A stretch of 64,000 nucleotides of DNA from the NCBI RefSeq assembly GCF_003812745.1, contig NZ_CP033831.1, positions 620,001-684,000 on the forward strand. Reading direction: 5' to 3'. The notes below the pieces were generated by a model, which saw nothing but the letters and a program-made list of their open reading frames with translations, did no database searches and was not told the origin of the DNA. How positions within the stretch are numbered: the first letter of the stretch is position 1; the number at the start of each line of letters is the position of its first letter. The position numbers and the translations under genes are program-made. The DNA is from Serratia sp. FDAARGOS_506 (GTDB lineage: Bacteria > Pseudomonadota > Gammaproteobacteria > Enterobacterales > Enterobacteriaceae). Below, one piece after another: positions 24,497-37,152 of this stretch.

Positions 24497-25315
24497 TCAA
24501 ATCGGCGTGACGAAACCCAGCTCCTGCGAGATGCGTTGCGCGGTGGCCAGCACCGGTTTAATCAGGCTTTTGACGCCGATTTGCTGCAGCTTGGCGGTTG
24601 GCAACGAAATAGATACCGCATAAGGCACGCGCTGTTGAATATCGAACACCGGCGCCGCCACGCAGGAGACCCCCAGCTCATTTTCTTCGCGATCCATCGC
24701 CATGCCGCGCTGGCGAATATCGGCCAGTTCCTCATACATCTTCGGCAGCTCGGTGATGGTATTGCGCGTCAGCGTCTGAATCTCCTGCTGGTGGGTCCGC
24801 CAGTAGTGGGCCGGGTAATCGTCGTTGCCGTAGGCCATGAAGATTTTCCCCATCGCCGAACAGTACAGCGGCATATGCTGGCCGATATAGGCGCGGGTGC
24901 GCATCATGCCGGTGGTCGGCTCCAGCTTGTAGATCAGAATGACGTGGTCGTCTTCGCGGCTGGAGAAGTTGACCGTCTCCCCCACTTCCAGGTTCAGCTG
25001 CTCCAAATGTGGTGCGGCCACGTGGATGATATTGAGTGACGACAGCGCCTTCTGGCCGATGGAAATGAATTTGGTGGTCAGGCGGTAGCTGCCCGGTGAC
25101 GGCGCCTGGGTCACATAGCCGCTGGTGTGCAAGCCCTGCAGCAGGCGGTGCACGGTGCTCTTGTTCATGCCGGCCAGCTCGGACAGATGCGCCAGTGGGC
25201 ATCCGTTGGGGAAATTGCTCAGGATCTCAATCAACTGCAAACCGCGGAACAGGCTTTGGCTGCCCAGCGGTTTGTCTTTCTTGTCATCTTTCTCGTCGAC
25301 GGCTTTCAGGCTCAT
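24497..25315 (-). CDS. yiaJ: IclR-family repressor YiaJ (PlaR)
   Basis: The 272-residue protein has an IclR winged helix (GSQSLFRGLQLIEILSNF and the recognition helix MNKSTVHRLLQGL) and the GAF-like effector domain with the YIGQHMPLYCSAMGKI motif. Much of it matches E. coli YiaJ as I recall it (PNGCPLAHLSELAG, AMDREENELGVSC). In E. coli it represses the yiaK-S operon. Here it is divergent from an ABC transporter operon, and matching candidate operators lie in front of that operon and of dlgD. The effector is thought to be a pathway intermediate or plant-derived ligand. Confidence 0.93.
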   Translation of the reverse strand: MSLKAVDEKDDKKDKPLGSQSLFRGLQLIEILSNFPNGCPLAHLSELAGMNKSTVHRLLQGLHTSGYVTQAPSPGSYRLTTKFISIGQKALSSLNIIHVAAPHLEQLNLEVGETVNFSSREDDHVILIYKLEPTTGMMRTRAYIGQHMPLYCSAMGKIFMAYGNDDYPAHYWRTHQQEIQTLTRNTITELPKMYEELADIRQRGMAMDREENELGVSCVAAPVFDIQQRVPYAVSISLPTAKLQQIGVKSLIKPVLATAQRISQELGFVTPI

Positions 25316-25689
25316 AGCGAAAATCTCTCCAGTGTCGAACCGCCAACCGGCGCTGCGGCGAAGTCGGCAGGCTCTTTGGCGGGCATGTTACCCCAAGGCC
25401 TGCATCAGGTGAAGACGGAACGCCGTTTCATTGTCCGCAGCGGGCCAGAAATCCGCAATATTTCCCCCGAATTGAAGTGAGCCATCGGTCACACTTCCGC
25501 AAAGTAAAAAATAACCCATTGTTTAATAAAAACAATTAAAACCTCACCACCTTTGATTTAGCGCAACGAACGTCATATTATTTTTGAAATTGAATTTCGC
25601 ATATTGAAATTTAAAGACCAGATACTCACCAACCGTTTGGCTACTTTGCCCGGCATCTTCGCACGGGCGCAACACCAGGGGCGCATCAC
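25316..25689 (+). promoter_or_regulatory. yiaJ / ABC-transporter divergent control region
   Basis: In these 374 bp the ABC operon has TTGATT (25553-25558), a 17-bp spacer and TATTAT (25576-25581). A strongly A+T-rich stretch (25500-25550) lies upstream. No confident yiaJ promoter was found. The candidate YiaJ operator is listed separately. Confidence 0.55.
25584..25613 (+). promoter_or_regulatory. Candidate YiaJ operator 1 (ABC transporter operon)
   Basis: TTGAAAT, three variable bases, then a 20-bp block ending ATATTGAAATTTA starts 3 bp after the -10 box, so it covers the expected transcription start. It matches the element at 30481-30510 at 27 of 30 positions. Both contain GAAAT-N3-ATTTC-like or GAATTTC half-sites. 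Repressor binding here would block initiation. Confidence 0.7.
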
Positions 25690-27243
25690 ATGACTATGGA
25701 TAATGCGGCACAACCCATCCTTACCCTCAGCCACATCGTCAAACGATTTGGCGGCAACGTGGCGGTCAACGACGTCAGCCTGCAGGTGATGCCGGGCGAG
25801 GTTCTGGCGCTGCTGGGCGAAAACGGCGCCGGCAAATCGACGCTGATCAAAGTGCTGGCAGGCGTCTACCCGCGCGACGGCGGCGATATTCGCTTTCAGG
25901 GCGCAAGCATCGCCTCTGCCGCCGCGATAAAAAGCGACAGCCGCCAGCCGATCGCCTTTATTCATCAGGATCTCGGCCTGATCGAATGGATGACGGTGTC
26001 GGAGAACATGGCGCTGGTCATGGGATTTCCCCGCCGCTTTGGGTTGATCGACTGGCGCGCCATTCGCAGCCGGGCGGTACAGGCGCTGCAAGACGTGGGC
26101 ATCGCCCTCGATCCCGACGCGCGCGTCTTCGAACTGTCACGCACCGAAAAGTCGTTGCTGGCGATCGCCCGCGCGGTGGCGGTCAACGCCGAGCTGCTGG
26201 TGCTGGATGAACCGACCGCCTCCCTGCCAGCCAACGACGTGCGTCATCTGTTTGCCGTAATCAACCGGCTGCGCGCCAAAAAGGTCGGCATGATTTACGT
26301 CACCCACCGTCTGGACGAAGTGATCGAAATCGCCGATCGGGTCTGCGTGATGCGCGACGGGCGCTATGTCGCCGGCGGCCGCACCGCCGACTACTCCCTG
26401 CGCGATCTGGTGCAAACCATCGTCGGCGAAGCGATGGCGGACGATCAACGCGAACCGCTACCGGAACATCGCCCACCAGTGCTGCAGCTCGATAGTGTCA
26501 CGGTGGGCGACATCGGCCCGGTGAGCTTCGATTTGCAGCCGGGCGAGATGCTGGCGCTGGCCGGCCTGCGCGGGGCCGGGCAAGAAGAGATCGGTCGGCT
26601 GTTGTTCGGCTTGCGTCAGGCCGACGGCGGCGCGATTCGGTTTCGGGATCGGCCCTATCTGGCAAGCTCCCCGCAGCAGGCGATGGCCTGCGGCGTTTCG
26701 CTGGTGGCAGGCGATCGCACCGGCGAAAGCCTGGTGATGTCGATGAGCGTGCGTGAAAACCTGTTTATCAATCCTTGCGCCAGCGGCCATCGGCTGCTCT
26801 CCCGCTATGGGCGGCGGGCGGAGATCGGCGCCAGCTGGTGGAAAGTGCAGCTGTTCGACGTGCGCCCCAAGGACGTCAATATCGATATCAGCGCGCTGTC
26901 CGGCGGCAACCAGCAAAAGGTAGTGATGGCGCGCTGGATGCATCTGGGTGCACCACTGTTAATCCTGGAAGATCCCACCGCCGGCGTGGACGTCGGCGCA
27001 CGAGCAGAAATCTACCATCTGCTGAATAAATCCCTGGCGGAAGGCGTGGCGGTACTGGTGATCTCCAACGATTTCGAGGAGATCGCCCATATTTGCAACC
27101 GCGCGCTGGTGTTCAACCGCGGGAAAGTGGTCGGCGAGCTGAAAAATCAGCAGGTGTCATTCGCCAATTTATTGGAGCTGGCCTCTGCCAGCACCGGGGA
27201 AAGCGTCGCAATCACGTCAGAATCCGAGGTAGGCCATGTCTAA
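25690..27243 (+). CDS. Sugar ABC transporter, double ATPase subunit
   Basis: The 517-residue RbsA/AraG-type protein has two ATPase domains. Domain 1 (about 10-240) has Walker A LLGENGAGKST and Walker B LLVLDEPTASL, but its signature reads ELSRTEKSLLAIARA instead of LSGGQ. Domain 2 (about 265-505) lacks a canonical Walker A (LAGLRGAGQEEI) yet has a full signature LSGGNQQK and Walker B LLILEDPTAGVD. This asymmetric pattern, with composite sites, is common in the family. It overlaps the permease gene by 8 bp. I infer import of a sugar acid or lactone from its co-regulation with the diketogulonate operon. Confidence 0.92.
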   Translation: MTMDNAAQPILTLSHIVKRFGGNVAVNDVSLQVMPGEVLALLGENGAGKSTLIKVLAGVYPRDGGDIRFQGASIASAAAIKSDSRQPIAFIHQDLGLIEWMTVSENMALVMGFPRRFGLIDWRAIRSRAVQALQDVGIALDPDARVFELSRTEKSLLAIARAVAVNAELLVLDEPTASLPANDVRHLFAVINRLRAKKVGMIYVTHRLDEVIEIADRVCVMRDGRYVAGGRTADYSLRDLVQTIVGEAMADDQREPLPEHRPPVLQLDSVTVGDIGPVSFDLQPGEMLALAGLRGAGQEEIGRLLFGLRQADGGAIRFRDRPYLASSPQQAMACGVSLVAGDRTGESLVMSMSVRENLFINPCASGHRLLSRYGRRAEIGASWWKVQLFDVRPKDVNIDISALSGGNQQKVVMARWMHLGAPLLILEDPTAGVDVGARAEIYHLLNKSLAEGVAVLVISNDFEEIAHICNRALVFNRGKVVGELKNQQVSFANLLELASASTGESVAITSESEVGHV

Positions 27244-28318
27244 AACATCCGTTAAATCAACCGCGCTGGAGCAGCGCGTCAGCCTGGCGCAGGACGGCGC
27301 CGGCCCGTGGCTGATGCAGGTACTCACCCGCTATGGCCTGCTGCTGCTGTGCGTCGCGCTGGTCGTGCTGTTCTCACTGATCACTCCCTCTTTCGCATCG
27401 ATGCTGACGCTGCAGGCGATCCTGTCGAGCAAAGCCAAAATCGCCCTGTTGGCGCTGGCGGCAACCATCCCGATGATCGTGGGCAAGATCGATCTTAACG
27501 TCGGTTTCGGCATTGTGCTGTGGCACATCCTGGCGATCACGCTACAGGTAGAATACGGCTTCTCCTGGCAGATGGCGGTGCTGACAGTACTGGCGATCTC
27601 GGCGCTGTACGGCTTGCTGAACGGCATTCTGGTGGCGCTGGCCGATATCGACAGCTTCGTCGCCACCCTCGGTTCCGGCACCGTACTGTACGCCATCGCC
27701 CTGTGGCACTCCGGCGGGCGTCAGATCGTCGGCGACTTGCCGGATGCCTTTATCGCGCTGCACCACACCGAGATCGCCGGTATTCCGATCGTGGCGTTTT
27801 ACGTGCTGATCGTCGCGGTGGTGCTGTGGCTTATCACCGAACACACTCCGCTCGGCCGCTGCATGTATGCGGTGGGCGGCAACCCGGCGGCGGCTCGCCT
27901 GAACGGCATCTCGGTCAACCGCTTCACCATCGGTGCCTTCATCGCCTCCAGCGTGCTCACCGGTTTCAGCGGCGTGTTGATCGCCGCCGAACAGGGCGTC
28001 GGCCAGGCCAGCGTCGGGATGGACTATCTGCTGCCGGCGCTGGTCGGCGCTTTCCTCGGCAGCACCACCATTCGCCCAGGGCGCGTCAACGTCTGGGGCA
28101 CCGTGGTCGGCATCGCCATTCTGGCTATCGGCATCGCCGGCATTCAGCAGTTCGGCGGCGAATTCTGGGTCGAGCCGCTGTTCAATGGCGCGACGCTGCT
28201 GCTGTCGATCACCCTGGCCGGCTATGCCCAACGCCGCCGGCTGCTCAATCAAAAAGCGGTACAACGCAGCCAGGCGACGCCGGCTGACAACAACAACCAG
28301 ACAGCGACCCATTCTTAA
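27236..28318 (+). CDS. Sugar ABC transporter permease
   Basis: The 360-residue BPD_transp_2/RbsC-type permease has about nine to ten hydrophobic segments, with the family's GLLNGILVALADIDSFVATLGS and YAVGGNPAAARLNGISVNRF cytoplasmic motif that contacts the ATPase. It has an extended N-terminus of about 35 polar residues. The start ATG lies inside the ATPase gene, an 8-bp overlap, and the binding-protein gene follows 14 bp downstream. It would form the homodimeric membrane channel of the importer. Confidence 0.92.
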   Translation: MSKTSVKSTALEQRVSLAQDGAGPWLMQVLTRYGLLLLCVALVVLFSLITPSFASMLTLQAILSSKAKIALLALAATIPMIVGKIDLNVGFGIVLWHILAITLQVEYGFSWQMAVLTVLAISALYGLLNGILVALADIDSFVATLGSGTVLYAIALWHSGGRQIVGDLPDAFIALHHTEIAGIPIVAFYVLIVAVVLWLITEHTPLGRCMYAVGGNPAAARLNGISVNRFTIGAFIASSVLTGFSGVLIAAEQGVGQASVGMDYLLPALVGAFLGSTTIRPGRVNVWGTVVGIAILAIGIAGIQQFGGEFWVEPLFNGATLLLSITLAGYAQRRRLLNQKAVQRSQATPADNNNQTATHS

Positions 28319-28332
28319 ACCAGGAGCACACC

Positions 28333-29433
28333 ATGAAACGCATTTGGCTGTTATCGGGGTTCACGACACTGCTGCTCGCCGCATCGCCGGCCAGGGCCGA
28401 CGCCTATCTCGATCAGGCCACCGCCGCCGTCGCGAAGGCCACTGCCAGCGCCACCCAGTGGGACGGTCCCACCAGCGGCCCGCAGCTGCAGGCCAACAAG
28501 AAAATCATTTTTATCGCCTCCGACATGAAGAACGGCGGCGTACAAGGGGTACAGCAGGGATTGAGCGAAGCGGCGAAGGCCGCCGGTTGGAAGCTGGAAA
28601 CGCTCGACGGTGGCGGTTCGGTGAAAGATCAGCTGGCATCGCTCAATCAGGCCATCGCCCAAAAACCGGACGGCATCGTGATCGGCGGCTGGAACCCCAA
28701 CGTCGCCAAGATCCCGCTGAAAAAGGCCGTGCAACAGGGCATCGTGCTGACCGCCTGGCACGCGGTGCCGGAACCGGGCCCCATCGCCAACTACAACGTG
28801 TTCTATAACGTCACGTCGGATTCCAACGAAGTGGCTCGCATCGCTGCGCAATACGCGGTGGTGCAATCCGGCGGCAAAGCGAGCGTGCTGATTTTCACCG
28901 ACTCGCTGTACCAAATCGCGCTGGACAAGGCCAACGTCATGAAAGAAGAGATCGCCAAATGCGGCGGCTGCACGCTGCTGGAATTCATCGACACGCCGCT
29001 GGCCGATACCGCCAACCGCATGCCGGCGATGACCTTCAGCCTGCTGCAGAAATATGGCGACAAATTCCAATATGCGCTGGCGATCAACGATCTGTACTTC
29101 GACTTTATGGCCCCGGCACTGAAGACCGCCGGTAAAGGCGGCAAGAACGCGCCTTACAACGTATCGGCCGGCGACGGTTCGATCTCCGCTTACCAGCGTA
29201 TCCGGTCGGGCGACAGCCAGTCGGCGACGGTGCCGGAACCCTTGAAGCTGCACGGTTGGCAACTACTGGACGAATTCAACCGCGCCTTCGCCAAACAGCC
29301 GCCTTCCGGCTACGTCACCCCGGCGCATCTGGTGACCCGCGACAATATCGCCGCCGACGGCGGCGCCAATAACCTGTATGACCCGCAAAACGATTATCAG
29401 GGCCATTACAAAGCGATCTGGGGCGTGAAGTGA
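28333..29433 (+). CDS. Periplasmic substrate-binding protein of the co-regulated ABC importer
   Basis: The 366-residue protein has a signal peptide (MKRIWLLSGFTTLLLAASPARA, cleavage about 22) and a type I periplasmic binding fold (KIIFIASDMKNGGVQG, GIVIGGWNPN, SVLIFTDSLYQIALDK). AGGAGC precedes the start. It is about 40 residues longer than RbsB and has extra cysteines (CGGC at about 213-216), which could form a disulfide. The ligand is unknown. Regulation with the diketogulonate genes suggests an oxidised sugar acid or its lactone. Confidence 0.9.
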   Translation: MKRIWLLSGFTTLLLAASPARADAYLDQATAAVAKATASATQWDGPTSGPQLQANKKIIFIASDMKNGGVQGVQQGLSEAAKAAGWKLETLDGGGSVKDQLASLNQAIAQKPDGIVIGGWNPNVAKIPLKKAVQQGIVLTAWHAVPEPGPIANYNVFYNVTSDSNEVARIAAQYAVVQSGGKASVLIFTDSLYQIALDKANVMKEEIAKCGGCTLLEFIDTPLADTANRMPAMTFSLLQKYGDKFQYALAINDLYFDFMAPALKTAGKGGKNAPYNVSAGDGSISAYQRIRSGDSQSATVPEPLKLHGWQLLDEFNRAFAKQPPSGYVTPAHLVTRDNIAADGGANNLYDPQNDYQGHYKAIWGVK

Positions 29434-30296
29434 ACGGGGATTCATTGCGCACGCCCGCCCGGCTCGAGCGTCTGTGTTCGCCGGCGATTTGGGCCGAAGG
29501 GCCGGTGTGGCTGCCGCAGGAGGATGCGGTGGTGTTCAGCGACGTGAAAGGCAATCGCATGTTCCGCTGGTCGCGCGGGGGTGAGCTGAGCCTATACCGC
29601 TCGCCGTCGCACTACGCCAACGGCAATGCGCGCGATGGTGAGGGGCGCGTGGTCAGCTGCGAACACGGGCGGCGTGGCATCAGCCGCACCGAAAGCGATG
29701 GTGAGGTGCGCCTGTTGATCGATCGCGTCGACGGCAAGCGCTTTAACTCGCCGAACGACGTGGCGGTGCGTTCCGACGGCACCCTGTGGTTCACCGATCC
29801 CCCCTACGGCATCATCGGCGACGAAGAAGGCTACAAATCGGAAAGCCAGGTGATCGGTTGTTACCTCTACTGCTTCGATCCGCTCGACGGTTCACTGACC
29901 ATCGCCGCCTGCGACCTGCAGCGCCCCAACGGCCTGGCGTTTTCACCAGATGAAAAATGGCTGTATGTCGCGGACATGTCGATCGTGGATTTCCCGACGC
30001 TGGGCCGCCGCGAGCTACGCGTCTATGCGGTCAACGGCCGCGAGCTGCAAGCCGGCCGCCGTTTCGCGACGGTTGAACCCGGTTTCCCGGACGGGTTCTG
30101 CGTCGATCGGGCCGGCAATCTGTTTTGCAGCTGCGCCGACGGCGTGCTGGTCTTTAATCCTGAGGGGCGACAGATCGACAAAATCAGCGTGCCGGAACGC
30201 GTCTCCAATTGTACCTTCGGCGGCCCGAACGGCGATGAGCTCTATATCACCGCCACCACCTCGCTCTACCGCATGGTGCTGAACACCCGCGGTTAG
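29430..30296 (+). CDS. SMP-30/gluconolactonase-family lactonase
   Basis: The 288-residue six-bladed beta-propeller has the family's metal-binding pattern: Glu in WAEGPVW near residue 27, Asn in FNSPNDVAV, and Asp in KWLYVADMS, plus PNGLAFSPDE. These residues coordinate the divalent metal used for lactone hydrolysis. It starts with GTG overlapping the binding-protein stop (GTGA), so it is translationally coupled to the importer. No signal peptide is present, so it acts in the cytosol on an imported lactone. Together with the dlgD operon this predicts lactone opening to 2,3-diketogulonate, an inference. Confidence 0.9.
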   Translation: MNGDSLRTPARLERLCSPAIWAEGPVWLPQEDAVVFSDVKGNRMFRWSRGGELSLYRSPSHYANGNARDGEGRVVSCEHGRRGISRTESDGEVRLLIDRVDGKRFNSPNDVAVRSDGTLWFTDPPYGIIGDEEGYKSESQVIGCYLYCFDPLDGSLTIAACDLQRPNGLAFSPDEKWLYVADMSIVDFPTLGRRELRVYAVNGRELQAGRRFATVEPGFPDGFCVDRAGNLFCSCADGVLVFNPEGRQIDKISVPERVSNCTFGGPNGDELYITATTSLYRMVLNTRG

Positions 30297-30313
30297 CCGG
30301 GGTCTGGCAAAAC

Positions 30314-30342
30314 GCAGGGTGGGTTTCGATCCGCCCTGCTTT
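30314..30342 (+). terminator. Terminator of the ABC/lactonase operon
   Basis: GCAGGGTGG / CCGCCCTGC (9 bp with one G-T pair), loop of 8 nt, then TTTTG-like tail. It is 17 bp after the lactonase stop. Confidence 0.7.
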
Positions 30343-30374
30343 GTCACGTCTGAAGCACGCCATCTCCACCAAAA

Positions 30375-30390
30375 CGTGGCGACGATCACA
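30375..30390 (+). promoter_or_regulatory. Candidate CRP site upstream of dlgD
   Basis: CGTGG-CGACGA-TCACA has a perfect right half-site and correct 6-bp spacing; the left half-site is 3 of 5. It is about 100 bp upstream of the predicted start of transcription. CRP control would fit a sugar catabolic operon. Confidence 0.4.
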
Positions 30391-30448
30391 AAATCACCAC
30401 TCAATTTTAACATCCTGTTTTTCATGAATAATTTTACTCCCCCTTGCT

Positions 30449-30477
30449 TTGACTTCCCTGAATCGTCGGGATAGCAT
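30449..30477 (+). promoter_or_regulatory. dlgD operon promoter
   Basis: TTGACT (30449-30454), 17 bp, TAGCAT (30472-30477). The operator-like element begins 4 bp further on, and the dlgD start codon is 76 bp downstream of the -10. Confidence 0.7.
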
Positions 30478-30480
30478 TTA

Positions 30481-30510
30481 TTGAAATGCAATTTCGTATA
30501 TTGAAATTTA
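30481..30510 (+). promoter_or_regulatory. Candidate YiaJ operator 2 (dlgD operon)
   Basis: TTGAAAT-GCA followed by a 20-bp block ending ATATTGAAATTTA matches the element at 25584-25613 at 27 of 30 positions. It is placed the same way relative to its -10 box. Its left part is an inverted repeat GAAAT-GCA-ATTTC. Confidence 0.75.
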
Positions 30511-30552
30511 GCGAACCAAAAACAAGCAATGGCGCATCAGCGGAGAATCGGC

Positions 30553-31551
30553 ATGAGAGTGAGTTACAGCGAGTTAAAACACCAATTCAAACGCGCATTA
30601 TTGGCGCGCGGCGTGGCGGAGCACACCGCCGACGACTGTGCCGGCATGTTCGCCGACACCACCGCCAGCGGCGTTTACTCCCACGGCGTTAACCGCTTTC
30701 CGCGCTTTATTCAGCAGCTGGACGCCGGCGACATCGTGCCGGACGCTGAACCCAGCAAGCTGTTGTCTCTGGGTGCGATCGAACAATGGGATGCGCATCA
30801 GGGCATCGGCAACCTTACCGCCCGCCGCATGATGGATCGCGCCATGCAGTTGGCCGACGATCATGGCATCGGTCTGGTGGCGCTGCGCAACGCCAACCAC
30901 TGGATGCGCGGCGGCGGCTATGGCTGGCAGGCGGCGGAAAAAGGCTATGTCGGCATTTGCTGGACCAACTCGATCGCCGTGATGCCGCCGTGGGGCGCCA
31001 AAACGTGCCGTATCGGCACCAACCCGCTGATCGTCGCCGTGCCCGGCAACCCGATCACCATGGTGGACATGTCGATGTCGATGTTTTCCTACGGCGCGCT
31101 GGAGCTGAACCGGTTGGCGGGCAAAACCCTGCCGGTGGACGGCGGCTTCGACAACGACGGTCGGTTAACCCGCGATCCGGCGACCATCGAGGAAAACCGA
31201 CGCATCCTGCCAATGGGGTACTGGAAAGGATCGGCGCTGTCGATCGTGCTGGACATGATCGCCACCCTGCTGTCCGGCGGCGCCTCGGTGGCGGAAGTGA
31301 CGGAAGATCATCGCGACGAATACGGCGTATCGCAGGTGTTCATCGCAATCGAGATCGATCGATTGATCGACGGCGACAGCCGCGATCAAAAACTGCAGCG
31401 CATCATGGATTACGTCACCAGCGCCGAACGGGACAATCCCGACGTCGCCATTCGCCTGCCGGGCCACAAGTTCCCGCGCATTCAGGAAGAAAACCTGCGC
31501 GACGGCATTCCCGTCGACGAACGGGTTTGGGCGCGCATTCAGGCGCTGTAA
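30553..31551 (+). CDS. dlgD: 2,3-diketo-L-gulonate reductase
   Basis: The 332-residue malate/L-lactate dehydrogenase-family enzyme (YiaK) has the same length as the E. coli protein and near-identity across [33 protein letters not shown] and [17 protein letters not shown]. It reduces 2,3-diketo-L-gulonate to 3-keto-L-gulonate with NADH. I use ATG 30553 because [12 protein letters not shown] aligns with the known start; the frame is open eight codons earlier. It is first in a six-to-seven gene operon and is preceded by the YiaJ-type operator. Confidence 0.95.
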
Positions 31552-31565
31552 CGGGAGGAGTCATC

Positions 31566-32036
31566 ATGATATTCGGTCACATCGCCAACACCGCACCCGA
31601 GCAGTACCCGGTACCGGTCGCCAACGCCGTCGCCTATTTGCAGCGCACTGATTTCAGCACATTCCCCGCAGGGCGCTATGAAGATCCCGCCACCGGCTAC
31701 GTGGTGCAAGTGCTGGATCTGCATACCCAACCACCAGATGCGCTGCGCCCCGAAGTGCATCGGCAAAACGTCGACGTGCAGTTTCTGGTCAGCGGCACCG
31801 AGCTTATCGGCGTAGCGGCGGACAGCGGCGACAACGTCGTTCATCAGGAGCTGCTGGCGCAGCGCGACATCCTGTTTTATCGGGACGTGGCCGACGAGTC
31901 CTGGCTCACGATGCGGCCAGGCAACTTCGCGGTATTTTTCCCGCAGGACGTGCATCGCCCGGCCTGCATTAACCAACGCCCCAGCGCGATACGCAAGGTG
32001 GTGGTGAAGATACCGCTGGCGTCGTTTAGCGCCTGA
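31566..32036 (+). CDS. yiaL: YhcH/YjgK/YiaL (DUF386) family protein
   Basis: The 156-residue cupin-like protein has the DUF386 landmarks RPEVHRQNVDVQFLVSG (histidine/Glu cluster) and FFPQDVHRPAC (metal-site His). E. coli YiaL sits at the same place in its operon. Related proteins (NanQ/YhcH) act on sugar anomers or isomers, so a mutarotase-like role on a pathway intermediate is possible. GGGAGG lies just before the ATG at 31566, 14 bp after dlgD. Confidence 0.88.
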   Translation: MIFGHIANTAPEQYPVPVANAVAYLQRTDFSTFPAGRYEDPATGYVVQVLDLHTQPPDALRPEVHRQNVDVQFLVSGTELIGVAADSGDNVVHQELLAQRDILFYRDVADESWLTMRPGNFAVFFPQDVHRPACINQRPSAIRKVVVKIPLASFSA

Positions 32037-32162
32037 TCGGCCGCAATCCCCATAACGATAGCAACACCGGTCCATGGGGCCTGTGCGGACGCCCCTGCGC
32101 CCAAATCAACCAAAACAATAACGCCCGACCCTACAAAAAAGCGAACATCGAAAGAGGTCCTT

Positions 32163-33458
32163 ATGAATACAGCCTCCGTTTCCGTCAGCCAAAGCCAGGC
32201 GATCCCCAAGCTCCGCTGGCTGAGGATCGTGCCGCCGATCCTCATCACTTGCATCATTTCTTACATGGACCGGGTCAACATCGCCTTCGCCATGCCCGGC
32301 GGCATGGATGACGAACTCGGCATCACCGCATCAATGGCCGGGCTGGCCGGTGGCATCTTCTTTATCGGCTATCTGTTTCTGCAGGTGCCCGGCGGCAAGC
32401 TGGCGGTATACGGTAACGGCAAGAAATTCATCGGCTGGTCACTGTTGGCCTGGGCGGTGATCTCGGTGTTGACCGGCCTGGTCACCAACCAGTACCAGTT
32501 GCTGTTCCTGCGCTTCGCCCTCGGCGTTTCCGAAGGCGGCATGCTGCCGGTGGTGCTGACCATGATCAGCAACTGGTTCCCGGATAAGGAACGCGGCCGC
32601 GCCAACGCCATCGTCATCATGTTCGTGCCGATCGCCGGTATCCTCACCGCCCCGCTGTCGGGTTGGATCATCACCGCCTGGGACTGGCGCATGCTGTTTC
32701 TGGTGGAAGGCGGCCTGTCGCTGGTGGTGATGGTGTTGTGGTACTTCACCATCAGCAACCGGCCGCAGGAAGCGAAATGGATCTCGCAGGCGGAAAAAGA
32801 GTATCTGGTGAAAACCCTGCACGACGAACAGCTGCTGATTAAAGGAAAAACGGTGCGCAACGCCTCGCTGCGCCGAGTGCTGGGCGACCGGATCATGTGG
32901 CAGCTGATCCTGGTGAATTTCTTCTACCAGACAGGTATCTACGGTTACACCCTGTGGCTGCCGACCATTTTGAAAGGGCTGACCCACGGTGATATGGAGC
33001 AAGTGGGCATGCTGGCTATCCTGCCCTATATCGGCGCCATCTTCGGCATGCTGATCATCTCGACCCTCTCCGATCGCACCGGCAAGCGCAAAGTTTTCGT
33101 CGCCCTGCCGCTGGCCTGCTTTGCTGCCTGCATGGCGCTGTCAGTGCTGCTTAAGGATCACGTCTGGTGGTCTTACGCCGCGCTGGTCGGCTGCGGCGTA
33201 TTTATTCAGGCGGCGGCCGGGGTGTTCTGGACCATCCCGCCCAAATTGTTCAATGCCGAAGTCGCCGGCGGCGCGCGTGGCGTGATCAATGCACTGGGCA
33301 ACCTCGGCGGCTTTTGCGGCCCCTATATGGTCGGCGTGTTAATCAGCCTGTTCAGCAAGGACGTCGGCGTCTACAGCCTGGCGGCTTCGCTGGCGATCGC
33401 CTCCGTGCTGGCGTTAATGCTGCCCACTAAATGCGACCACAGCGCGAGGAACCCATGA
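32163..33458 (+). CDS. MFS transporter (anion:cation symporter type)
   Basis: The 431-residue protein has about 12 transmembrane segments and the ACS-family signature SYMDRVNIAFAMPGG at about 36-50, FALGVSEGGMLPVV, and NWFPDKERGRANA. In E. coli this position holds the TRAP transporter yiaMNO for 2,3-diketo-L-gulonate. Here one MFS gene replaces it, so it probably imports that acid or another sugar acid with protons. It is preceded by a 126-bp gap and AGAGGTCC, and its stop overlaps the lyxK start (ATGA). Confidence 0.9.
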   Translation: MNTASVSVSQSQAIPKLRWLRIVPPILITCIISYMDRVNIAFAMPGGMDDELGITASMAGLAGGIFFIGYLFLQVPGGKLAVYGNGKKFIGWSLLAWAVISVLTGLVTNQYQLLFLRFALGVSEGGMLPVVLTMISNWFPDKERGRANAIVIMFVPIAGILTAPLSGWIITAWDWRMLFLVEGGLSLVVMVLWYFTISNRPQEAKWISQAEKEYLVKTLHDEQLLIKGKTVRNASLRRVLGDRIMWQLILVNFFYQTGIYGYTLWLPTILKGLTHGDMEQVGMLAILPYIGAIFGMLIISTLSDRTGKRKVFVALPLACFAACMALSVLLKDHVWWSYAALVGCGVFIQAAAGVFWTIPPKLFNAEVAGGARGVINALGNLGGFCGPYMVGVLISLFSKDVGVYSLAASLAIASVLALMLPTKCDHSARNP

Positions 33459-34948
33459 TGGAATATTGGCTGGGGCTCGACTGCGGCGGTACCTTCATCA
33501 AGGCGGGATTATACGACCGCAGGGGCAATGAACACGGCGTTGCACGGCGCAATCTGGCGATCGTCGCGCCGCAGCCCGGTTGGGCCGAACGCGATATGGC
33601 ATCGCTGTGGCGCACCGCCGCCGACGTGATCCGCGAAGTACTGTCTGCCAGCGGCGTCGCCGCCGGCGCCATCCAGGCCATCGGCATCTCGGCGCAGGGC
33701 AAGGGCGCATTTCTGCTGGATAAACAGGGGCAGCCGCTGGGCAACGCCATGCTCTCTTCCGATCAGCGCGCGCTGGCGCTGGTGCAGGAATGGCAGCGGC
33801 AGGGCGTGCCGCAGACGCTGTATCCGCAAACGCGCCAAACGCTGTGGACCGGGCACCCGGTCTCGCTGCTGCGCTGGCTGAAGCGCCATCAGCCGGAACG
33901 TTACGCCCGCATCGGCAGCGTGCTGATGGCGCACGACTACCTGCGCTATTGCCTGACCGGCGAGCTGGCCTGCGAAGAAACCAATATCTCCGAATCCAAC
34001 CTGTATCAGATGCGCAGCGGGCGCTATGACCCGGCGCTGGCGCAGCTGCTGGATATCGGCGACATCATGCCCGCCCTGCCAACAATTATCGGCCCGGCCG
34101 ATATCGCCGGGCGCGTCGATATAAACGCCGCAGCCATCACCGGCCTGCAAGCCGGCACCCCGGTGGTCGGCGGATTGTTCGACGTGGTATCCACCGCGCT
34201 GTGCGCCGGCTTGCAGGACGAAACCCGGCTCAACGCGGTGATGGGAACCTGGTCGGTCACCAGCGGCATCACCGACACCATCGTCGACGGTTTTGATCAT
34301 CCCTTTGTCTATGGCCGCCACGCCGAAAGCGGCCAATACATCGTGCACGAAGCCAGCCCCACCTCCGCCGCCAACCTGGAATGGTTCTGCCGTCAATGGG
34401 GGCTGCAGGACTACGGCCAACTTAACCACTGGGTCGCCGCGCTGCCGAAGGCCGCCGGCGATCTGCTGTTCGCCCCTTTCCTTTACGGCTCCAACGCCGG
34501 CCTGGGGCTAAGCGCCAGCTTCTACGGCCTGCAGGCCTTCCACCAGCGAGAACACCTGGTGCAGGCGATCTACGAAGGCGTGGTGTTCTGCCACATGACG
34601 CACCTCAACCGCATGCGCCTGCGTTTCCCCGCGACGCAGGCGCTGCGCGTGACCGGCGGCCCTGCCAAGTCTCTCCCCTGGATGCAAATGTTCGCCGACA
34701 TCAGCGGCCTGCCGGTGGAGCTGCCGCAGGTGGAGGAAACCGGCTGTCTGGGCGCGGCGATGGCGGCCATGGTCGGCAGCGGCGTCTTTGACGATTTCAT
34801 TGCCGCCCAGCGCCGGCTGGCGCCCCGTATCGAGCGGCTGCTGCCAGATGCGGCTGCCGCCGAAGCTTACGACAACAAACACCAACGTTATCAGGCGCTG
34901 ATTGCTGCATTGCAAAATCTGCAGCCCGCCAACAAGGAGGCTCCATGA
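33455..34948 (+). CDS. lyxK: L-xylulose / 3-keto-L-gulonate kinase
   Basis: The 497-residue FGGY kinase has the N-terminal YWLGLDCGGTFIKAGLYDR, the substrate Asp region GGLFDVVSTALCAG and the ATP-site RVTGGPAKSLPWMQM. It is close to E. coli LyxK (YiaP). It phosphorylates 3-keto-L-gulonate, and L-xylulose, at the expense of ATP. ATG 33455 overlaps the transporter stop. A second in-frame ATG follows at 33458. It overlaps sgbH by four bases. Confidence 0.93.
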   Translation: MMEYWLGLDCGGTFIKAGLYDRRGNEHGVARRNLAIVAPQPGWAERDMASLWRTAADVIREVLSASGVAAGAIQAIGISAQGKGAFLLDKQGQPLGNAMLSSDQRALALVQEWQRQGVPQTLYPQTRQTLWTGHPVSLLRWLKRHQPERYARIGSVLMAHDYLRYCLTGELACEETNISESNLYQMRSGRYDPALAQLLDIGDIMPALPTIIGPADIAGRVDINAAAITGLQAGTPVVGGLFDVVSTALCAGLQDETRLNAVMGTWSVTSGITDTIVDGFDHPFVYGRHAESGQYIVHEASPTSAANLEWFCRQWGLQDYGQLNHWVAALPKAAGDLLFAPFLYGSNAGLGLSASFYGLQAFHQREHLVQAIYEGVVFCHMTHLNRMRLRFPATQALRVTGGPAKSLPWMQMFADISGLPVELPQVEETGCLGAAMAAMVGSGVFDDFIAAQRRLAPRIERLLPDAAAAEAYDNKHQRYQALIAALQNLQPANKEAP

Positions 34949-35601
34949 GCACGAAACCGCGCCTGCAGCTGGCGCTCGATCAAACCCGTCTGGATACGGC
35001 GTTGCGCGCCGCCGAGACTCTCGCCCCCCATGTGGACATCATCGAGGCCGGTACCATTTTGTGCATCAGCGCCGGCATTCAGGCAGTTAGCGCGCTGCGC
35101 GAGCGCTGCCCACAGCACACGCTGGTGGCCGATCTCAAGGTGGCCGACGCCGGTGCGACGCTGGCCGAGCAGGCCTTCGGCCAGGGCGCGGACTGGATGA
35201 CGGTGATCTGCGCCGCACCGTTGGCCACCATGGCCAGCGCGCGGGAGGTGGCCGAGCGCCACGGCGGTGAAATCCAGATCGAACTGTTCGGCCGCTGGAC
35301 GCTGGAGGATGCGCGGCAATGGCGCGGTCTCGGCATTCGCCAGGCGATCTATCACCGCGGCCGCGATGCGCAGGCCAGCGGGCAAACCTGGGGCCGGCAG
35401 GATCTGGAGCGGATGAAGGCGCTGTCCGATTTGGGTATCGAGCTGTCGGTAACCGGCGGCATCACGCCCGCCGACCTGCCGCTGTTTAAAGAGATCGCCG
35501 TCACCGCCTTTATCGTCGGCCGCGCGCTGGCCGAAGCCGGGGATCCGTCGGCGGCCGCCAGACAGTTCCGCACCGCCATCGATGACATCTGGAGATCATG
35601 A
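34945..35601 (+). CDS. sgbH: 3-keto-L-gulonate-6-phosphate decarboxylase
   Basis: The 218-residue orotidine-monophosphate-decarboxylase-suprafamily protein has [14 protein letters not shown], the DxKxxD metal motif as [10 protein letters not shown], and the phosphate-binding [14 protein letters not shown]. It converts 3-keto-L-gulonate-6-phosphate to L-xylulose-5-phosphate with Mg2+. UlaD is the paralogue in the ascorbate operon; context (lyxK upstream, SgbU/SgbE downstream) favours SgbH. The start overlaps lyxK by ATGA. Confidence 0.93.
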
Positions 35602-35602
35602 T

Positions 35603-36463
35603 ATGCGTCAGCACCCATTGGGAATTTACGAGAAAGCGCTGCCGAAACACCTGAGCTGGCCCGAACGTCTGGCGCTGGCCAAGGCCTGCGGCTTCGACTT
35701 CGTCGAAATGTCGGTGGACGAAAGCGATGAGCGCCTGGCACGCCTGAGCTGGAGCAAAGCGCAGCGCCTGGCGCTGGTTGAAGCCATGCTGGAAACCGGC
35801 ATCCGCATCCCGTCGATGTGCCTCTCCGGCCACCGGCGCTTTCCGTTTGGCAGCCACGATCCGGCGCTGCGACAGCGCGCCTTCGACGTGATGGAGCAGG
35901 CCATTGAGCTGGCCAAAGACGTCGGTATCCGCACGATCCAGCTGGCCGGCTACGACGTGTATTACGAAGAGCAGGACGAAGGGACGCTGGCGCGCTTTAG
36001 CGAGGGCATGCAGTGGGCGGTAGAACGTGCCGCCGCCGCCCAGGTGATGCTGGCAGTGGAAATTATGGACACCGCCTTTATGAATTCGATCGGCAAATGG
36101 AAAACCTGGGACGCCCTGCTGGCCTCGCCGTGGTTCACGGTGTATCCGGACGTCGGCAACCTCAGCGCCTGGGGCAACGACGTGCAGCGCGAACTGGAGC
36201 TGGGCATCGATCGCATCGCCGCCATTCATCTGAAAGATACCTACCCGGTCACCGCCGCTTCGCCGGGGCAATTCCGTGACGTGCCGTTTGGCGAAGGCTG
36301 CGTCGACTTCGTCGGGGTGTTCAGCACGCTGCAGCGCCTCAATTATCGCGGCGCATTCCTGATTGAGATGTGGACAGAAAAAGCCGAGGAGCCGGTGGCC
36401 GAGATCGTTCAGGCCCGCCGCTGGATTGAACAGAAAATGCAACAAGGGGGCATGACATGCTGA
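35603..36463 (+). CDS. sgbU: L-ribulose-5-phosphate 3-epimerase (L-xylulose-5-phosphate 3-epimerase)
   Basis: The 286-residue TIM barrel has the family N-terminus [18 protein letters not shown] and metal ligands in [12 protein letters not shown] (Glu), [13 protein letters not shown] (Asp), [10 protein letters not shown] (His) and [11 protein letters not shown] (Glu). It converts L-xylulose-5-phosphate to L-ribulose-5-phosphate. The ATG at 35603, one base after the sgbH stop, matches E. coli SgbU length (286). It overlaps sgbE by 7 bp. Confidence 0.94.
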
Positions 36464-37152
36464 CTCAGTTAAAACAACAGGTGCTGGAAGCCAATCTCGA
36501 ACTACCGCGCCATAAGCTGGTGACCTTTACCTGGGGCAACGTCAGCGCGGTGGATCGCGAACGCGGTCTGGTGGTGATCAAGCCTTCCGGCGTTGAGTAC
36601 GAGCATATGACGGCGGAGGATATGGTGGTGGTCGATCTGGCCAGCGGCCGCACCGTCGAAGGGGCAAAAAAACCGTCGTCGGACACCGCCACCCATCTGG
36701 CGCTGTACCGCGAATTCGCCGATATCGGCGGCATCGTCCACACCCACTCGCGCCACGCCACCATCTGGGCCCAGGCCGGGCTGGATATCCCCGCCTGGGG
36801 AACCACCCACGCCGACTATTTTTATGGCGCGATCCCCTGCACTCGCCTGATGACCCAAGAGGAAATTGAGCACGATTATGAACTGGAAACCGGAAAGGTG
36901 ATTATCGAGACCTTCCGCCAGCGCGATATCAACCCCAACGCTATTCCGGCGGTGCTGGTCAACGCTCATGGCCCCTTCGCCTGGGGCAAGAATGCCCACA
37001 ATGCGGTGCATAATGCGGTAGTGCTGGAAGAAATTGCCTACATGGGCATTTTCTCGCGCCAGCTGACGCCGGGCATTCACAGCATGCAGCGCGAACTGTT
37101 GGACAAACACTACCTGCGCAAACACGGCCAAAACGCCTATTACGGGCAGTAG
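36457..37152 (+). CDS. sgbE: L-ribulose-5-phosphate 4-epimerase
   Basis: The 231-residue class II aldolase/adducin-fold enzyme (AraD family) has the Zn ligands in [15 protein letters not shown] (two His) and the C-terminal HGPFAWGKN (His). [10 protein letters not shown] binds phosphate. It makes D-xylulose-5-phosphate, which enters the pentose phosphate pathway. It is the last gene of the dlgD operon. UlaF and AraD are paralogues, and the neighbours decide for SgbE. Confidence 0.94.

What the first reader, a model, noticed from the sequence alone, without database searches (positions are those of the whole stretch)
24497..37152. Extended diketogulonate regulon: ABC importer and lactonase added to yiaJ-dlgD-lyxK-sgbHUE
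In E. coli the pathway starts with the acid, taken up by a TRAP transporter. Here that transporter is replaced by an MFS gene, and a second transcript under the same kind of operator encodes an ABC importer with an SMP-30 lactonase. The predicted route is: lactone in, hydrolysis to 2,3-diketo-L-gulonate, reduction, phosphorylation, decarboxylation and two epimerisations to D-xylulose-5-phosphate. Dehydroascorbate fits as a source, for example from plants. I know of no description of such an ABC-plus-lactonase branch.
Basis: partly seen in the sequence, partly recalled or inferred. Interest (0 to 1): 0.8.

Follow-up and report, generated by a model that had tools for sequence, protein, structure and literature searches.

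The report
Putative vitamin C lactone import branch
In a Serratia genome, an uncharacterised sugar-type importer and a ring-opening enzyme sit under the same predicted switch as the known breakdown route for a vitamin C degradation product, and gene neighbourhoods in many other bacteria suggest, without proving it, that the pair brings in and opens an oxidised form of vitamin C.

Summary
Confirmed: yiaJ (minus strand), then an ABC importer (ATPase, permease, binding protein), an SMP-30 lactonase, dlgD, yiaL, MFS, lyxK, sgbH, sgbU and sgbE. A 29-bp operator-like word, also present between E. coli yiaJ and yiaK, occurs twice in the whole genome: before the ABC genes and before dlgD. The branch is widespread. 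Of 80 named loci (the best 80 of 399 relatives, picked by the binding protein) all have the ABC genes, 77 the lactonase and 68 a 2,3-diketo-L-gulonate (DKG) pathway gene nearby. Of 295 order-level genomes, all 12 with the ABC system have dlgD. It occurs beside TRAP, MFS or neither. Five diverged relatives lie with YncE-like, PdxA and rhamnonate-dehydratase genes, a set I recall as another ascorbate route through DKG; one relative lies with a UlaG-type ascorbate lactonase. Best reading: import of dehydroascorbate and cytoplasmic hydrolysis to DKG. The ligand is not shown. Rivals: L-ascorbate, or an aldonolactone (rhizobial relatives sit with L-idonate genes). Genomes with the branch but without the pathway exist (Rouxiella, Hafnia). 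The MFS-for-TRAP swap is not new (Klebsiella, recalled). New variant of a known kind.

The parts
24497..25315 (-). yiaJ/plaR-like IclR-family regulator
   Evidence: Pfam IclR_C and HTH_IclR; no NCBIfam equivalog reached its cut-off; a yiaJ relative of at least 45% identity is present in 65 of 80 named loci
25584..25612 (+). predicted YiaJ operator of the ABC-lactonase transcript
   Evidence: one of only two sites in the genome; same 29-bp word in the E. coli yiaJ-yiaK intergenic; 34 of 80 named loci have a site with at most 3 mismatches before abcA
25690..27243 (+). ABC importer ATPase with two ABC domains (CUT2 / RbsA type)
   Evidence: Pfam ABC_tran, 2 stretches; the 25 NCBIfam families shown of 190 all score below their cut-offs
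27236..28318 (+). ABC importer permease (BPD_transp_2)
   Evidence: 77-82% identical in Pasteurellaceae loci
28333..29433 (+). periplasmic binding protein with signal peptide, ligand unknown
   Evidence: Pfam Peripla_BP_4; no close solved structure; signal peptide judged by eye from the sequence
29430..30296 (+). SMP-30/gluconolactonase-family lactonase, GTG start, no signal peptide seen by eye (predicted cytoplasmic)
   Evidence: Pfam SGL 4.2e-46; solved relatives 3dr2 (E 2.6e-63) and 3e5z (E 4.8e-60); E23, N109, D110, N167, D221 invariant in 45 of 45 rows, window included
30481..30509 (+). predicted YiaJ operator of the dlgD transcript
30553..31551 (+). dlgD (yiaK), 2,3-diketo-L-gulonate reductase / 3-dehydro-L-gulonate 2-dehydrogenase
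   Evidence: NCBIfam NF009750, 615.9 bits against cut-off 316
31566..32036 (+). yiaL-like YhcH/YjgK/YiaL protein (DUF386)
32163..33458 (+). MFS transporter (yiaX2-like position), in place of the YiaMNO TRAP transporter
   Evidence: Pfam MFS_1; best NCBIfam score is the D-galactonate transporter subfamily, below its cut-off
33464..34948 (+). lyxK (yiaP), FGGY kinase, predicted 3-keto-L-gulonate kinase
   Evidence: Pfam FGGY_N and FGGY_C; no NCBIfam equivalog reaches its cut-off, so the name rests on gene order and family
34945..35601 (+). sgbH/ulaD, 3-keto-L-gulonate-6-phosphate decarboxylase
   Evidence: NCBIfam UlaD NF009831, 382 bits against cut-off 294; single copy in the genome
35582..36463 (+). 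sgbU/ulaE, L-ribulose-5-phosphate 3-epimerase family (L-xylulose-5-phosphate)
   Evidence: TIGR00542 488.4 bits against cut-off 272
36457..37152 (+). sgbE/ulaF, L-ribulose-5-phosphate 4-epimerase
   Evidence: TIGR00760 428.2 bits against cut-off 389; Pfam Aldolase_II

Best explanation
The ABC genes and the SMP-30 gene form an uptake-and-ring-opening branch of the YiaJ-controlled 2,3-diketo-L-gulonate (DKG) pathway. The periplasmic protein binds a neutral lactone, most likely dehydroascorbate (2,3-diketo-L-gulono-1,4-lactone). The CUT2-type ABC importer brings it in. The cytoplasmic SMP-30 enzyme hydrolyses it to DKG. DlgD reduces DKG to 3-keto-L-gulonate, LyxK phosphorylates it, SgbH decarboxylates it to L-xylulose 5-phosphate, and SgbU and SgbE epimerise this to D-xylulose 5-phosphate. 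The MFS protein (or TRAP in other species) imports the acid that forms outside. Shown here: genes, order, shared operator word unique in the genome, conservation and coupling to the pathway. Inferred: ligand, direction of transport, the lactonase's substrate, the MFS substrate, repression by YiaJ.
For: Operator pair unique in the genome. All 12 of 295 order-level genomes with this ABC system also have dlgD (21 genomes with an orthologous or linked dlgD in all; hypergeometric 4e-16, not corrected for kinship); in 11 of the 12 the two lie within about 17 kb, in G290 about 46 kb apart. Of 80 named loci 77 have the lactonase and 68 a DKG-pathway gene within 10 kb; 3 of the other 12 (Prodigiosinella, Paludibacterium, Gallibacterium) have dlgD, lyxK and KGPDC elsewhere. 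Two beta MAGs keep yiaJ-dlgD-ABC-lactonase with no lyxK relative (E<=1e-60) and no KGPDC (E<=1e-20) found, which fits DKG as the lactonase product. Diverged relatives of the ABC lie with YncE-like propeller, PdxA and rhamnonate-dehydratase genes in 5 loci, SMP-30 seen in four of them: the recalled Stack et al. 2020 ascorbate route, which also passes through DKG. A KSB3 relative has a UlaG equivalog near the ABC (482.8 bits, cut-off 306) and no SMP-30 found in the stretch. A Salmonella plasmid pairs the lactonase and pathway with an unrelated MFS. ABC and lactonase trees split alike. L-ascorbate frees E. coli YiaJ from DNA and induces its target promoter (PMC6958661, passages read).
Against: No ligand or activity data. 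Rouxiella (2 genomes) and Hafnia psychrotolerans keep yiaJ, operator, ABC and lactonase but have no close dlgD, lyxK or sgbH. Rhizobial relatives of ABC and lactonase (46-60% identical) sit with L-idonate 5-dehydrogenase and gluconokinase, so the family is not restricted to DKG routes. Only 1 of 6 phylum-sample genomes with the YncE gene has the ABC. No operator site with at most 3 mismatches was found before abcA in 46 of 80 loci, among them all Pasteurellaceae, Psychromonas, alpha and beta ones. Dehydroascorbate opens by itself within minutes at neutral pH (recalled), which weakens the need for a lactonase. D-galacturonate also acts on E. coli YiaJ (PMC6958661, passages read). The Stack et al. 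pathway is recalled and could not be read.
Confidence: 0.6

Rival explanations
1. The importer takes up L-ascorbate itself and the SMP-30 enzyme opens it to 3-keto-L-gulonate, which LyxK phosphorylates directly; DlgD then serves only the separately imported DKG. It is an unphosphorylated counterpart of the UlaABC-UlaG route.
For: UlaG does the same ring opening on ascorbate 6-phosphate (recalled) and a UlaG relative lies near one such ABC that lacks SMP-30; lyxK is present in 65 of 80 loci, as often as dlgD; ascorbate acts on YiaJ in E. coli (PMC6958661, passages read).
Against: Two loci keep dlgD while no lyxK relative (E<=1e-60) or KGPDC (E<=1e-20) was found in those genomes (both are MAGs, completeness not given); the YncE-type route, whose ABC and lactonase are related, passes through DKG (recalled).
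Confidence: 0.15
2. The importer and lactonase handle an ordinary aldonolactone (for example L-gulono-, L-idono- or L-galactono-1,4-lactone) whose acid enters the pathway through an oxidoreductase outside the cluster, or a 2-keto-L-gulonate/L-idonate type compound as in rhizobia.
For: Rhizobium, Martelella, Shinella and Neorhizobium relatives lie with 2-hydroxyacid dehydrogenase, L-idonate 5-dehydrogenase, a gluconate-5-dehydrogenase-like SDR and gluconokinase; SMP-30 enzymes often act on aldonolactones (recalled).
Against: The window cluster has no aldonate dehydrogenase; the window's ABC and lactonase fall with the DKG-linked rows, apart from the idonate-linked rows.
Confidence: 0.15
3. The ABC-lactonase transcript is a neighbour that imports an unrelated pentose or hexose and shares only the regulator, for co-use of plant sugars.
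For: CUT2 importers mostly carry plain sugars (recalled; family); YiaJ in E. coli has other plant-sugar targets (PMC6958661, passages read); Rouxiella and Hafnia keep it without the pathway.
Against: 12 of 12 co-occurrence with dlgD in the order sample, co-occurrence when unlinked, adjacency to dlgD or lyxK in many families, lactonase found with the pathway on a plasmid stretch without these ABC genes.
Confidence: 0.1

Closest known systems
E. coli yiaJ-yiaKLMNOPQRS (DlgD/LyxK/SgbHUE, TRAP YiaMNO)
   Same: Regulator, operator word, DlgD, YiaL; LyxK, SgbH, SgbU, SgbE (recalled)
   Different: E. coli has TRAP, and neither ABC nor lactonase in the 6.9 kb read from one strain (the rest of that genome was not searched); here MFS plus a second YiaJ-type transcript with ABC and lactonase
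Klebsiella yiaKLX1X2PQRS (recalled; Campos 2008, cited in PMC6958661, not readable)
   Same: MFS in place of TRAP
   Different: No ABC-lactonase branch in the gene name list; two unnamed same-family genomes here (G030, G200) show dlgD-yiaL-MFS-lyxK-sgbHUE with no such ABC genes
Cupriavidus necator H16 L-ascorbate pathway (Stack et al. 2020, recalled, not readable)
   Same: A gluconolactonase-family enzyme that yields 2,3-diketo-L-gulonate; five loci combine genes that look like this pathway's with a related ABC importer
   Different: Downstream genes (propeller, PdxA, rhamnonate/lyxonate dehydratase) are absent from the window cluster, and the propeller gene was not found in this genome at E<=1e-50
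UlaABC/UlaG ascorbate PTS route
   Same: Lactone opening followed by KGPDC and the two epimerases (recalled)
   Different: PTS phosphorylates on entry (recalled); this genome has only one KGPDC, the one in the cluster; ulaA and ulaG themselves were not searched
CUT2 ABC importers (RbsABC, YtfQRT, XylFGH)
   Same: One two-domain ATPase, one permease, one Peripla_BP_4 protein
   Different: The NCBIfam named members shown score below their cut-offs

Membership tests
YiaJ (PlaR) regulon | IclR-family regulator encoded beside dlgD-type genes | tested here: met
   relatives at least 54% identical beside the cluster in Enterobacterales and Pasteurellaceae loci
YiaJ (PlaR) regulon | Operator shared with E. 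coli yiaJ-yiaK | tested here: met
   0 mismatches in E. coli and at both window promoters, only two sites genome-wide; pattern made from these sites; the published PlaR box (PMC6958661) is a different, shorter consensus and was not searched
YiaJ (PlaR) regulon | Repressor binding and relief by ascorbate-type effector | not testable with these tools
   needs binding assay
2,3-diketo-L-gulonate pathway | DlgD, LyxK, SgbH, SgbU, SgbE together | tested here: met
   dlgD and sgbU, sgbH and sgbE pass NCBIfam cut-offs; lyxK by Pfam family and gene order only
2,3-diketo-L-gulonate pathway | TRAP transporter YiaMNO | tested here: not met
   MFS gene at its place in the cluster; MFS variant known in Klebsiella (recalled)
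CUT2 ABC sugar importer | Two-domain ATPase, BPD_transp_2 permease, Peripla_BP_4 protein | tested here: met
SMP-30/gluconolactonase lactonase | Pfam SGL above gathering score and metal/substrate residues kept | tested here: met
   158 bits against 26.3; E23, N109, N167, D221 in 45 of 45 rows; residue roles recalled
SMP-30/gluconolactonase lactonase | Lactonase activity on dehydroascorbate | not testable with these tools
   no assay
Stack-type ascorbate pathway | YncE/WD40-like rearrangement enzyme, PdxA, lyxonate dehydratase | tested here: not met
   propeller not found in this genome at E<=1e-50; none of the three in the window cluster

The most novel reading that the evidence does not exclude
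This is the first ABC importer family for vitamin C-derived lactones: one importer-plus-lactonase cassette that bacteria plug into at least two chemically different DKG routes (reduction/phosphorylation in Enterobacterales and Pasteurellaceae; propeller rearrangement in betas and roseobacters), and in rhizobia possibly into a third route from ascorbate through 2-keto-L-gulonate and L-idonate to gluconate.
Probability: 0.4. Interest if true: 0.75.

Novelty: new variant of a known kind. Interest (0 to 1): 0.6.

Why it matters
Described bacterial uptake for ascorbate compounds (recalled) is by PTS (UlaABC), TRAP (YiaMNO, for DKG) and MFS (YiaX2). An ABC system for the oxidised lactone would explain how plant- and animal-associated bacteria use vitamin C aerobically before it opens spontaneously, give function to a binding-protein family that is annotated in the records seen as 'substrate-binding domain-containing protein' or ribose-type, and give a candidate dehydroascorbate lactonase. 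It is directly testable with two purified proteins.

Tried and rejected
Absence of dlgD as a test of L-ascorbate against dehydroascorbate: Psychromonas (f12) first seemed to lack dlgD, but a 47% dlgD with a TRAP system lies just beyond the first stretch, so that test failed. Solved structures: no close relative of the binding protein, no ligand inferred. Literature: one search used a term that may not match '2,3-diketo...' at word start, so it was repeated inside words with more terms (16 papers holding at least 3 of 6 terms, seen as a listing; none appeared from title and abstract start to describe this branch). Searches found no paper; others (30 of 36 listed; 6 of 6; 20 of 150; 3 of 3; 9 of 9; 10 of 287) were seen as listings, and no title or abstract start described an ABC-lactonase branch of this pathway. 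PMC6958661 and PMC3328466 were read as passages only. Chance neighbourhood was rejected.

Considered and rejected: that the branch is unique to this genome; that the seven 45-48% binding-protein relatives in the order sample are the same system (no relatives of the ATPase or permease beside them; the two examined lie beside GGDEF-EAL proteins).
Full report
What is there. The window lies in a 4.86 Mb two-contig genome; its nearest named relatives are Serratia (and 99% identity of the joined ABC proteins to a Serratia marcescens locus). Between 24497 and 37152 lie yiaJ (minus strand) and then, on the plus strand, a two-domain ABC ATPase, a BPD_transp_2 permease, a Peripla_BP_4 binding protein, an SMP-30/gluconolactonase protein, dlgD, yiaL, an MFS transporter, an FGGY kinase (lyxK), sgbH, sgbU and sgbE. 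dlgD and sgbU and sgbH and sgbE pass NCBIfam cut-offs; the ABC proteins, the lactonase, yiaJ, the MFS and lyxK reach no equivalog cut-off in the rows shown. The lactonase starts at a GTG that overlaps the stop of the binding protein and has no signal peptide visible by eye; the binding protein has one. Only one KGPDC gene was found in the genome.

Operator. The two promoter regions share TTGAAATNNANTTTCGYATATTGAAATTT, at 25584-25612 before the ATPase and 30481-30509 before dlgD. The E. coli yiaJ-yiaK intergenic region carries the same word (L257:2933). With up to 3 mismatches there are two matches in the window against 0 in 100 shuffles and two in the whole genome, with 0 for the reversed pattern. 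The pattern was written from these three sites, so the zero mismatches are not independent evidence; the genome-wide uniqueness is. The PlaR box published for E. coli (ATnTGAAACnnnGTTCAnTT, PMC6958661, passage read) is shorter and not identical; I did not search for it. Before abcA, 34 of 80 named loci have a site with at most 3 mismatches; 17 of 80, all Serratia, Pectobacterium or Brenneria, have one before both abcA and dlgD. No site with at most 3 mismatches before abcA was found in the other 46, among them all Pasteurellaceae, Psychromonas, alpha and beta loci. In Rouxiella, Hafnia and Prodigiosinella a site (1-5 mismatches) stands before the ABC genes although dlgD is not beside them, and the unlinked Prodigiosinella dlgD has its own site with 4 mismatches (L267).

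Conservation in the genus and order. In 30 genus genomes, 19 have a binding protein at least 91% identical and the same 19 have an sgbH at least 86% identical; in the other 11 only 46-47% KGPDC relatives (4 genomes) and weak hits were found. The 18 relatives fetched all have the 12 genes in one order (in L072 lyxK and abcA are matched in two pieces each). In 295 order-level genomes, 19 have a binding-protein match at E<=1e-30. Twelve of these are at least 54% identical with ABC genes beside them; seven are 45-48% identical with none. All 12 are among the 27 genomes with a dlgD match at E<=1e-60 (same size of sample and same handles where listed). Of the 15 others, 9 have a dlgD at least 70% identical and no such binding protein, and 6 have 44-47% relatives. 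In 11 of the 12 the two genes lie within about 17 kb; in G290 they are about 46 kb apart.

Named relatives. One scan of genome contigs gave 399 relatives of the binding protein, of which the best 80 were kept. In these 80 (binding protein present by selection), all three ABC genes are present in 80, the lactonase in 77, dlgD in 65, lyxK in 65, at least one DKG-pathway gene in 68, a yiaJ relative in 65, an MFS relative in 40, a TRAP relative in 15 (thresholds in that script, many rows are close kin, some loci are cut by contig ends). Eight loci with dlgD, lyxK and sgb genes show neither MFS nor TRAP relative (L133, L138, L139, L158, L160, L161, L162, L186); whether another importer exists elsewhere in those genomes was not tested. 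TRAP and ABC occur together in 15 (13 Pasteurellaceae, Edwardsiella L170 and L169) and, in wider stretches, in the three Psychromonas (TRAP large subunit 57% identical). So the ABC branch is added to the acid importers rather than taking their place.

The 12 loci without a pathway gene nearby. Prodigiosinella (L149), Paludibacterium (L165) and Gallibacterium (L180) have dlgD, lyxK and KGPDC elsewhere. Rhizobacter (L196) has the other gene set described below. L195 and L197 are betas in which I recognised no pathway genes; both stretches are cut short. L172 (KSB3) has a UlaG relative; no dlgD, lyxK or KGPDC was found in that MAG. L188 (Pasteurellaceae MAG) and L121 (Serratia sp. Ag1) have ABC genes without lactonase at the locus; no dlgD was found in either genome, and L121's has only a 44% lyxK relative. 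Against the reading: Rouxiella badensis (L135), Rouxiella aceris (L159) and Hafnia psychrotolerans (L134) keep yiaJ, ABC and lactonase, yet in the two Rouxiella genomes no dlgD (E<=1e-40) or KGPDC (E<=1e-20) and only 36-37% lyxK relatives were found, and Hafnia has only a 43% dlgD and a 48% KGPDC.

The lactonase goes with the pathway, not only with the ABC genes. On a Salmonella plasmid (L297) an SMP-30 protein 72% identical to the window's stands with IclR, yiaK, yiaL, FGGY kinase, ulaD and the two epimerases, but with an MFS transporter that shows no significant similarity to the window's MFS (best E 0.06). In KSB3 a UlaG-type lactonase lies 1.3 kb downstream of the ABC genes, with a GntR-FCD regulator gene on the other strand between them; it passes the L-ascorbate-6-phosphate lactonase equivalog cut-off (482.8 against 306 bits), and no SMP-30 was found within the 21 kb.

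A second gene set with a related cassette. Relatives of the ABC at 47-61% identity and SMP-30 at 45-49% lie with a YncE-like beta-propeller gene, a PdxA-family gene and an L-rhamnonate-dehydratase-type gene in Rhizobacter (L196), genome G535 (L236), Paraburkholderia graminis (L256, with cytochrome b561), Ruegeria pomeroyi (L258; no SMP-30 seen in the stretch, propeller 42% identical) and Phaeobacter inhibens (L265; SMP-30 about 9 kb from the binding protein, propeller 45% identical). This gene set matches what I recall of the L-ascorbate pathway of Cupriavidus necator H16 (Stack et al., 2020): cytochrome b561, a gluconolactonase-family enzyme giving 2,3-diketo-L-gulonate, a WD40-like rearrangement enzyme, an amidohydrolase, a PdxA-family decarboxylase and L-lyxonate. 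I could not read that paper, identity with its enzymes was not tested, and I did not look for the amidohydrolase. Variovorax (L250) and Sphingomonas (L255) have SMP-30, YncE and b561 with other transporters. In a 398-genome phylum sample, 6 genomes have the YncE gene and only 1 of them (G535) is among the 17 with the binding protein. If the recalled pathway is right, the metabolite common to both routes is DKG, which is why I favour DKG as the lactonase product and dehydroascorbate as the imported lactone.

A third setting weakens exclusivity. In Martelella, Rhizobium johnstonii, Neorhizobium and Shinella the related ABC, with an SMP-30 gene nearby in all four, lies with a 2-hydroxyacid dehydrogenase, L-idonate 5-dehydrogenase, a gluconate-5-dehydrogenase-like SDR and gluconokinase. 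By similarity, L238 has the dehydrogenase, SDR and kinase, L239 and L240 the dehydrogenase and SDR, and L252 the SDR and kinase only. This allows aldonolactone or 2-keto-L-gulonate/L-idonate ligands in that branch, or an ascorbate route through 2-keto-L-gulonate. Other relatives (Leisingera L261, Roseateles L262) lie in settings with no link that I recognise.

Trees. I labelled 58 chosen loci by setting; 50 of them, plus the window, have all three ABC proteins at the length required. With the ABC proteins joined (51 rows), one side of a branch with SH-aLRT 100 holds the window, 28 DKG-linked rows, the UlaG row and 5 unclear rows; the other side holds all 5 YncE-linked rows, 6 of the 7 L-idonate-linked loci and 5 unclear ones. 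The lactonase tree (48 rows) splits the same way with 99. These are quick trees with midpoint rooting; long branches were flagged.

Mechanism and likelihood. I give 0.6 to dehydroascorbate import and hydrolysis to DKG, 0.15 to L-ascorbate import and hydrolysis to 3-keto-L-gulonate, 0.15 to another aldonolactone, 0.1 to an unrelated sugar. Two beta MAGs (Formivibrio L171, Rhodocyclaceae L178) have yiaJ-dlgD-ABC-lactonase plus an SDR; no lyxK relative (E<=1e-60) and no KGPDC (E<=1e-20) were found in them (completeness not given), which favours DKG over 3-keto-L-gulonate as the lactonase product. E. coli YiaJ responds to L-ascorbate and D-galacturonate (PMC6958661, passages read), consistent with an ascorbate-related regulon but not telling which form enters here.

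Novelty. Regulator, DKG pathway and the MFS variant are known (E. coli; Klebsiella, recalled). I found no description of the ABC-lactonase branch in searches, seen as listings (some capped) from an open-access library that lacks most subscription papers; absence there is not proof. I file it as a new variant of a known kind.

Noticed in passing
L073:8832-12424, L103:9066-12646: 45-46% relatives of the binding protein without ABC genes are followed at once by a GGDEF-EAL protein (HAMP domain weak in one) and preceded, divergently, by a second Peripla_BP_4 protein: a likely sugar-acid-sensing cyclic-di-GMP module. Five further loci with such relatives (L102, L104-L107) also show no ABC ATPase or permease relative; their neighbours were not scanned.
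   Followed up: partly
L251, L259, L260, L299: Alphaproteobacterial plasmids carry the related ABC and SMP-30 with 2-hydroxyacid dehydrogenase, L-idonate 5-dehydrogenase, SDR and gluconokinase: a possible ascorbate or 2-keto-L-gulonate to L-idonate to gluconate route.
   Followed up: partly
L172:6091-13504: KSB3 MAG: NAD_binding_2 dehydrogenase, the ABC genes, a GntR-FCD regulator on the other strand and a UlaG-type ascorbate lactonase; no SMP-30 found in the stretch.
   Followed up: partly
L297:7571-16378: A Salmonella plasmid typed as conjugative IncI1 carries a DKG cluster with SMP-30 and an MFS transporter unrelated to the window's.
   Followed up: partly
L171:4700-11497, L178:6300-12923: Formivibrio and Rhodocyclaceae MAGs: dlgD-ABC-lactonase followed by a gluconate-5-dehydrogenase-like SDR (91% alike), with no lyxK or KGPDC found at the cut-offs used; the fate of 3-keto-L-gulonate there is unknown.
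   Followed up: partly
L151:3439-4389, L164:13572-14507, L123:13883-14899: A DUF4862 gene (Pfam) stands between yiaL and the MFS gene, perhaps Klebsiella yiaX1 (recalled); it is absent from the window cluster.
   Followed up: no
L135:12264-18678, L159:12435-18836: Rouxiella: after yiaJ-ABC-lactonase come a xylose-isomerase-like TIM barrel, a second CUT2-type ABC system, an RpiR-type regulator and a PfkB kinase (the last two scanned in L135 only); no DKG pathway found in these genomes.
   Followed up: partly
L121:7340-11101: Serratia sp. Ag1 has the three ABC genes with left-hand neighbours like those of other Serratia, but no yiaJ, lactonase or downstream cluster at this place: looks like a decaying remnant.
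   Followed up: no
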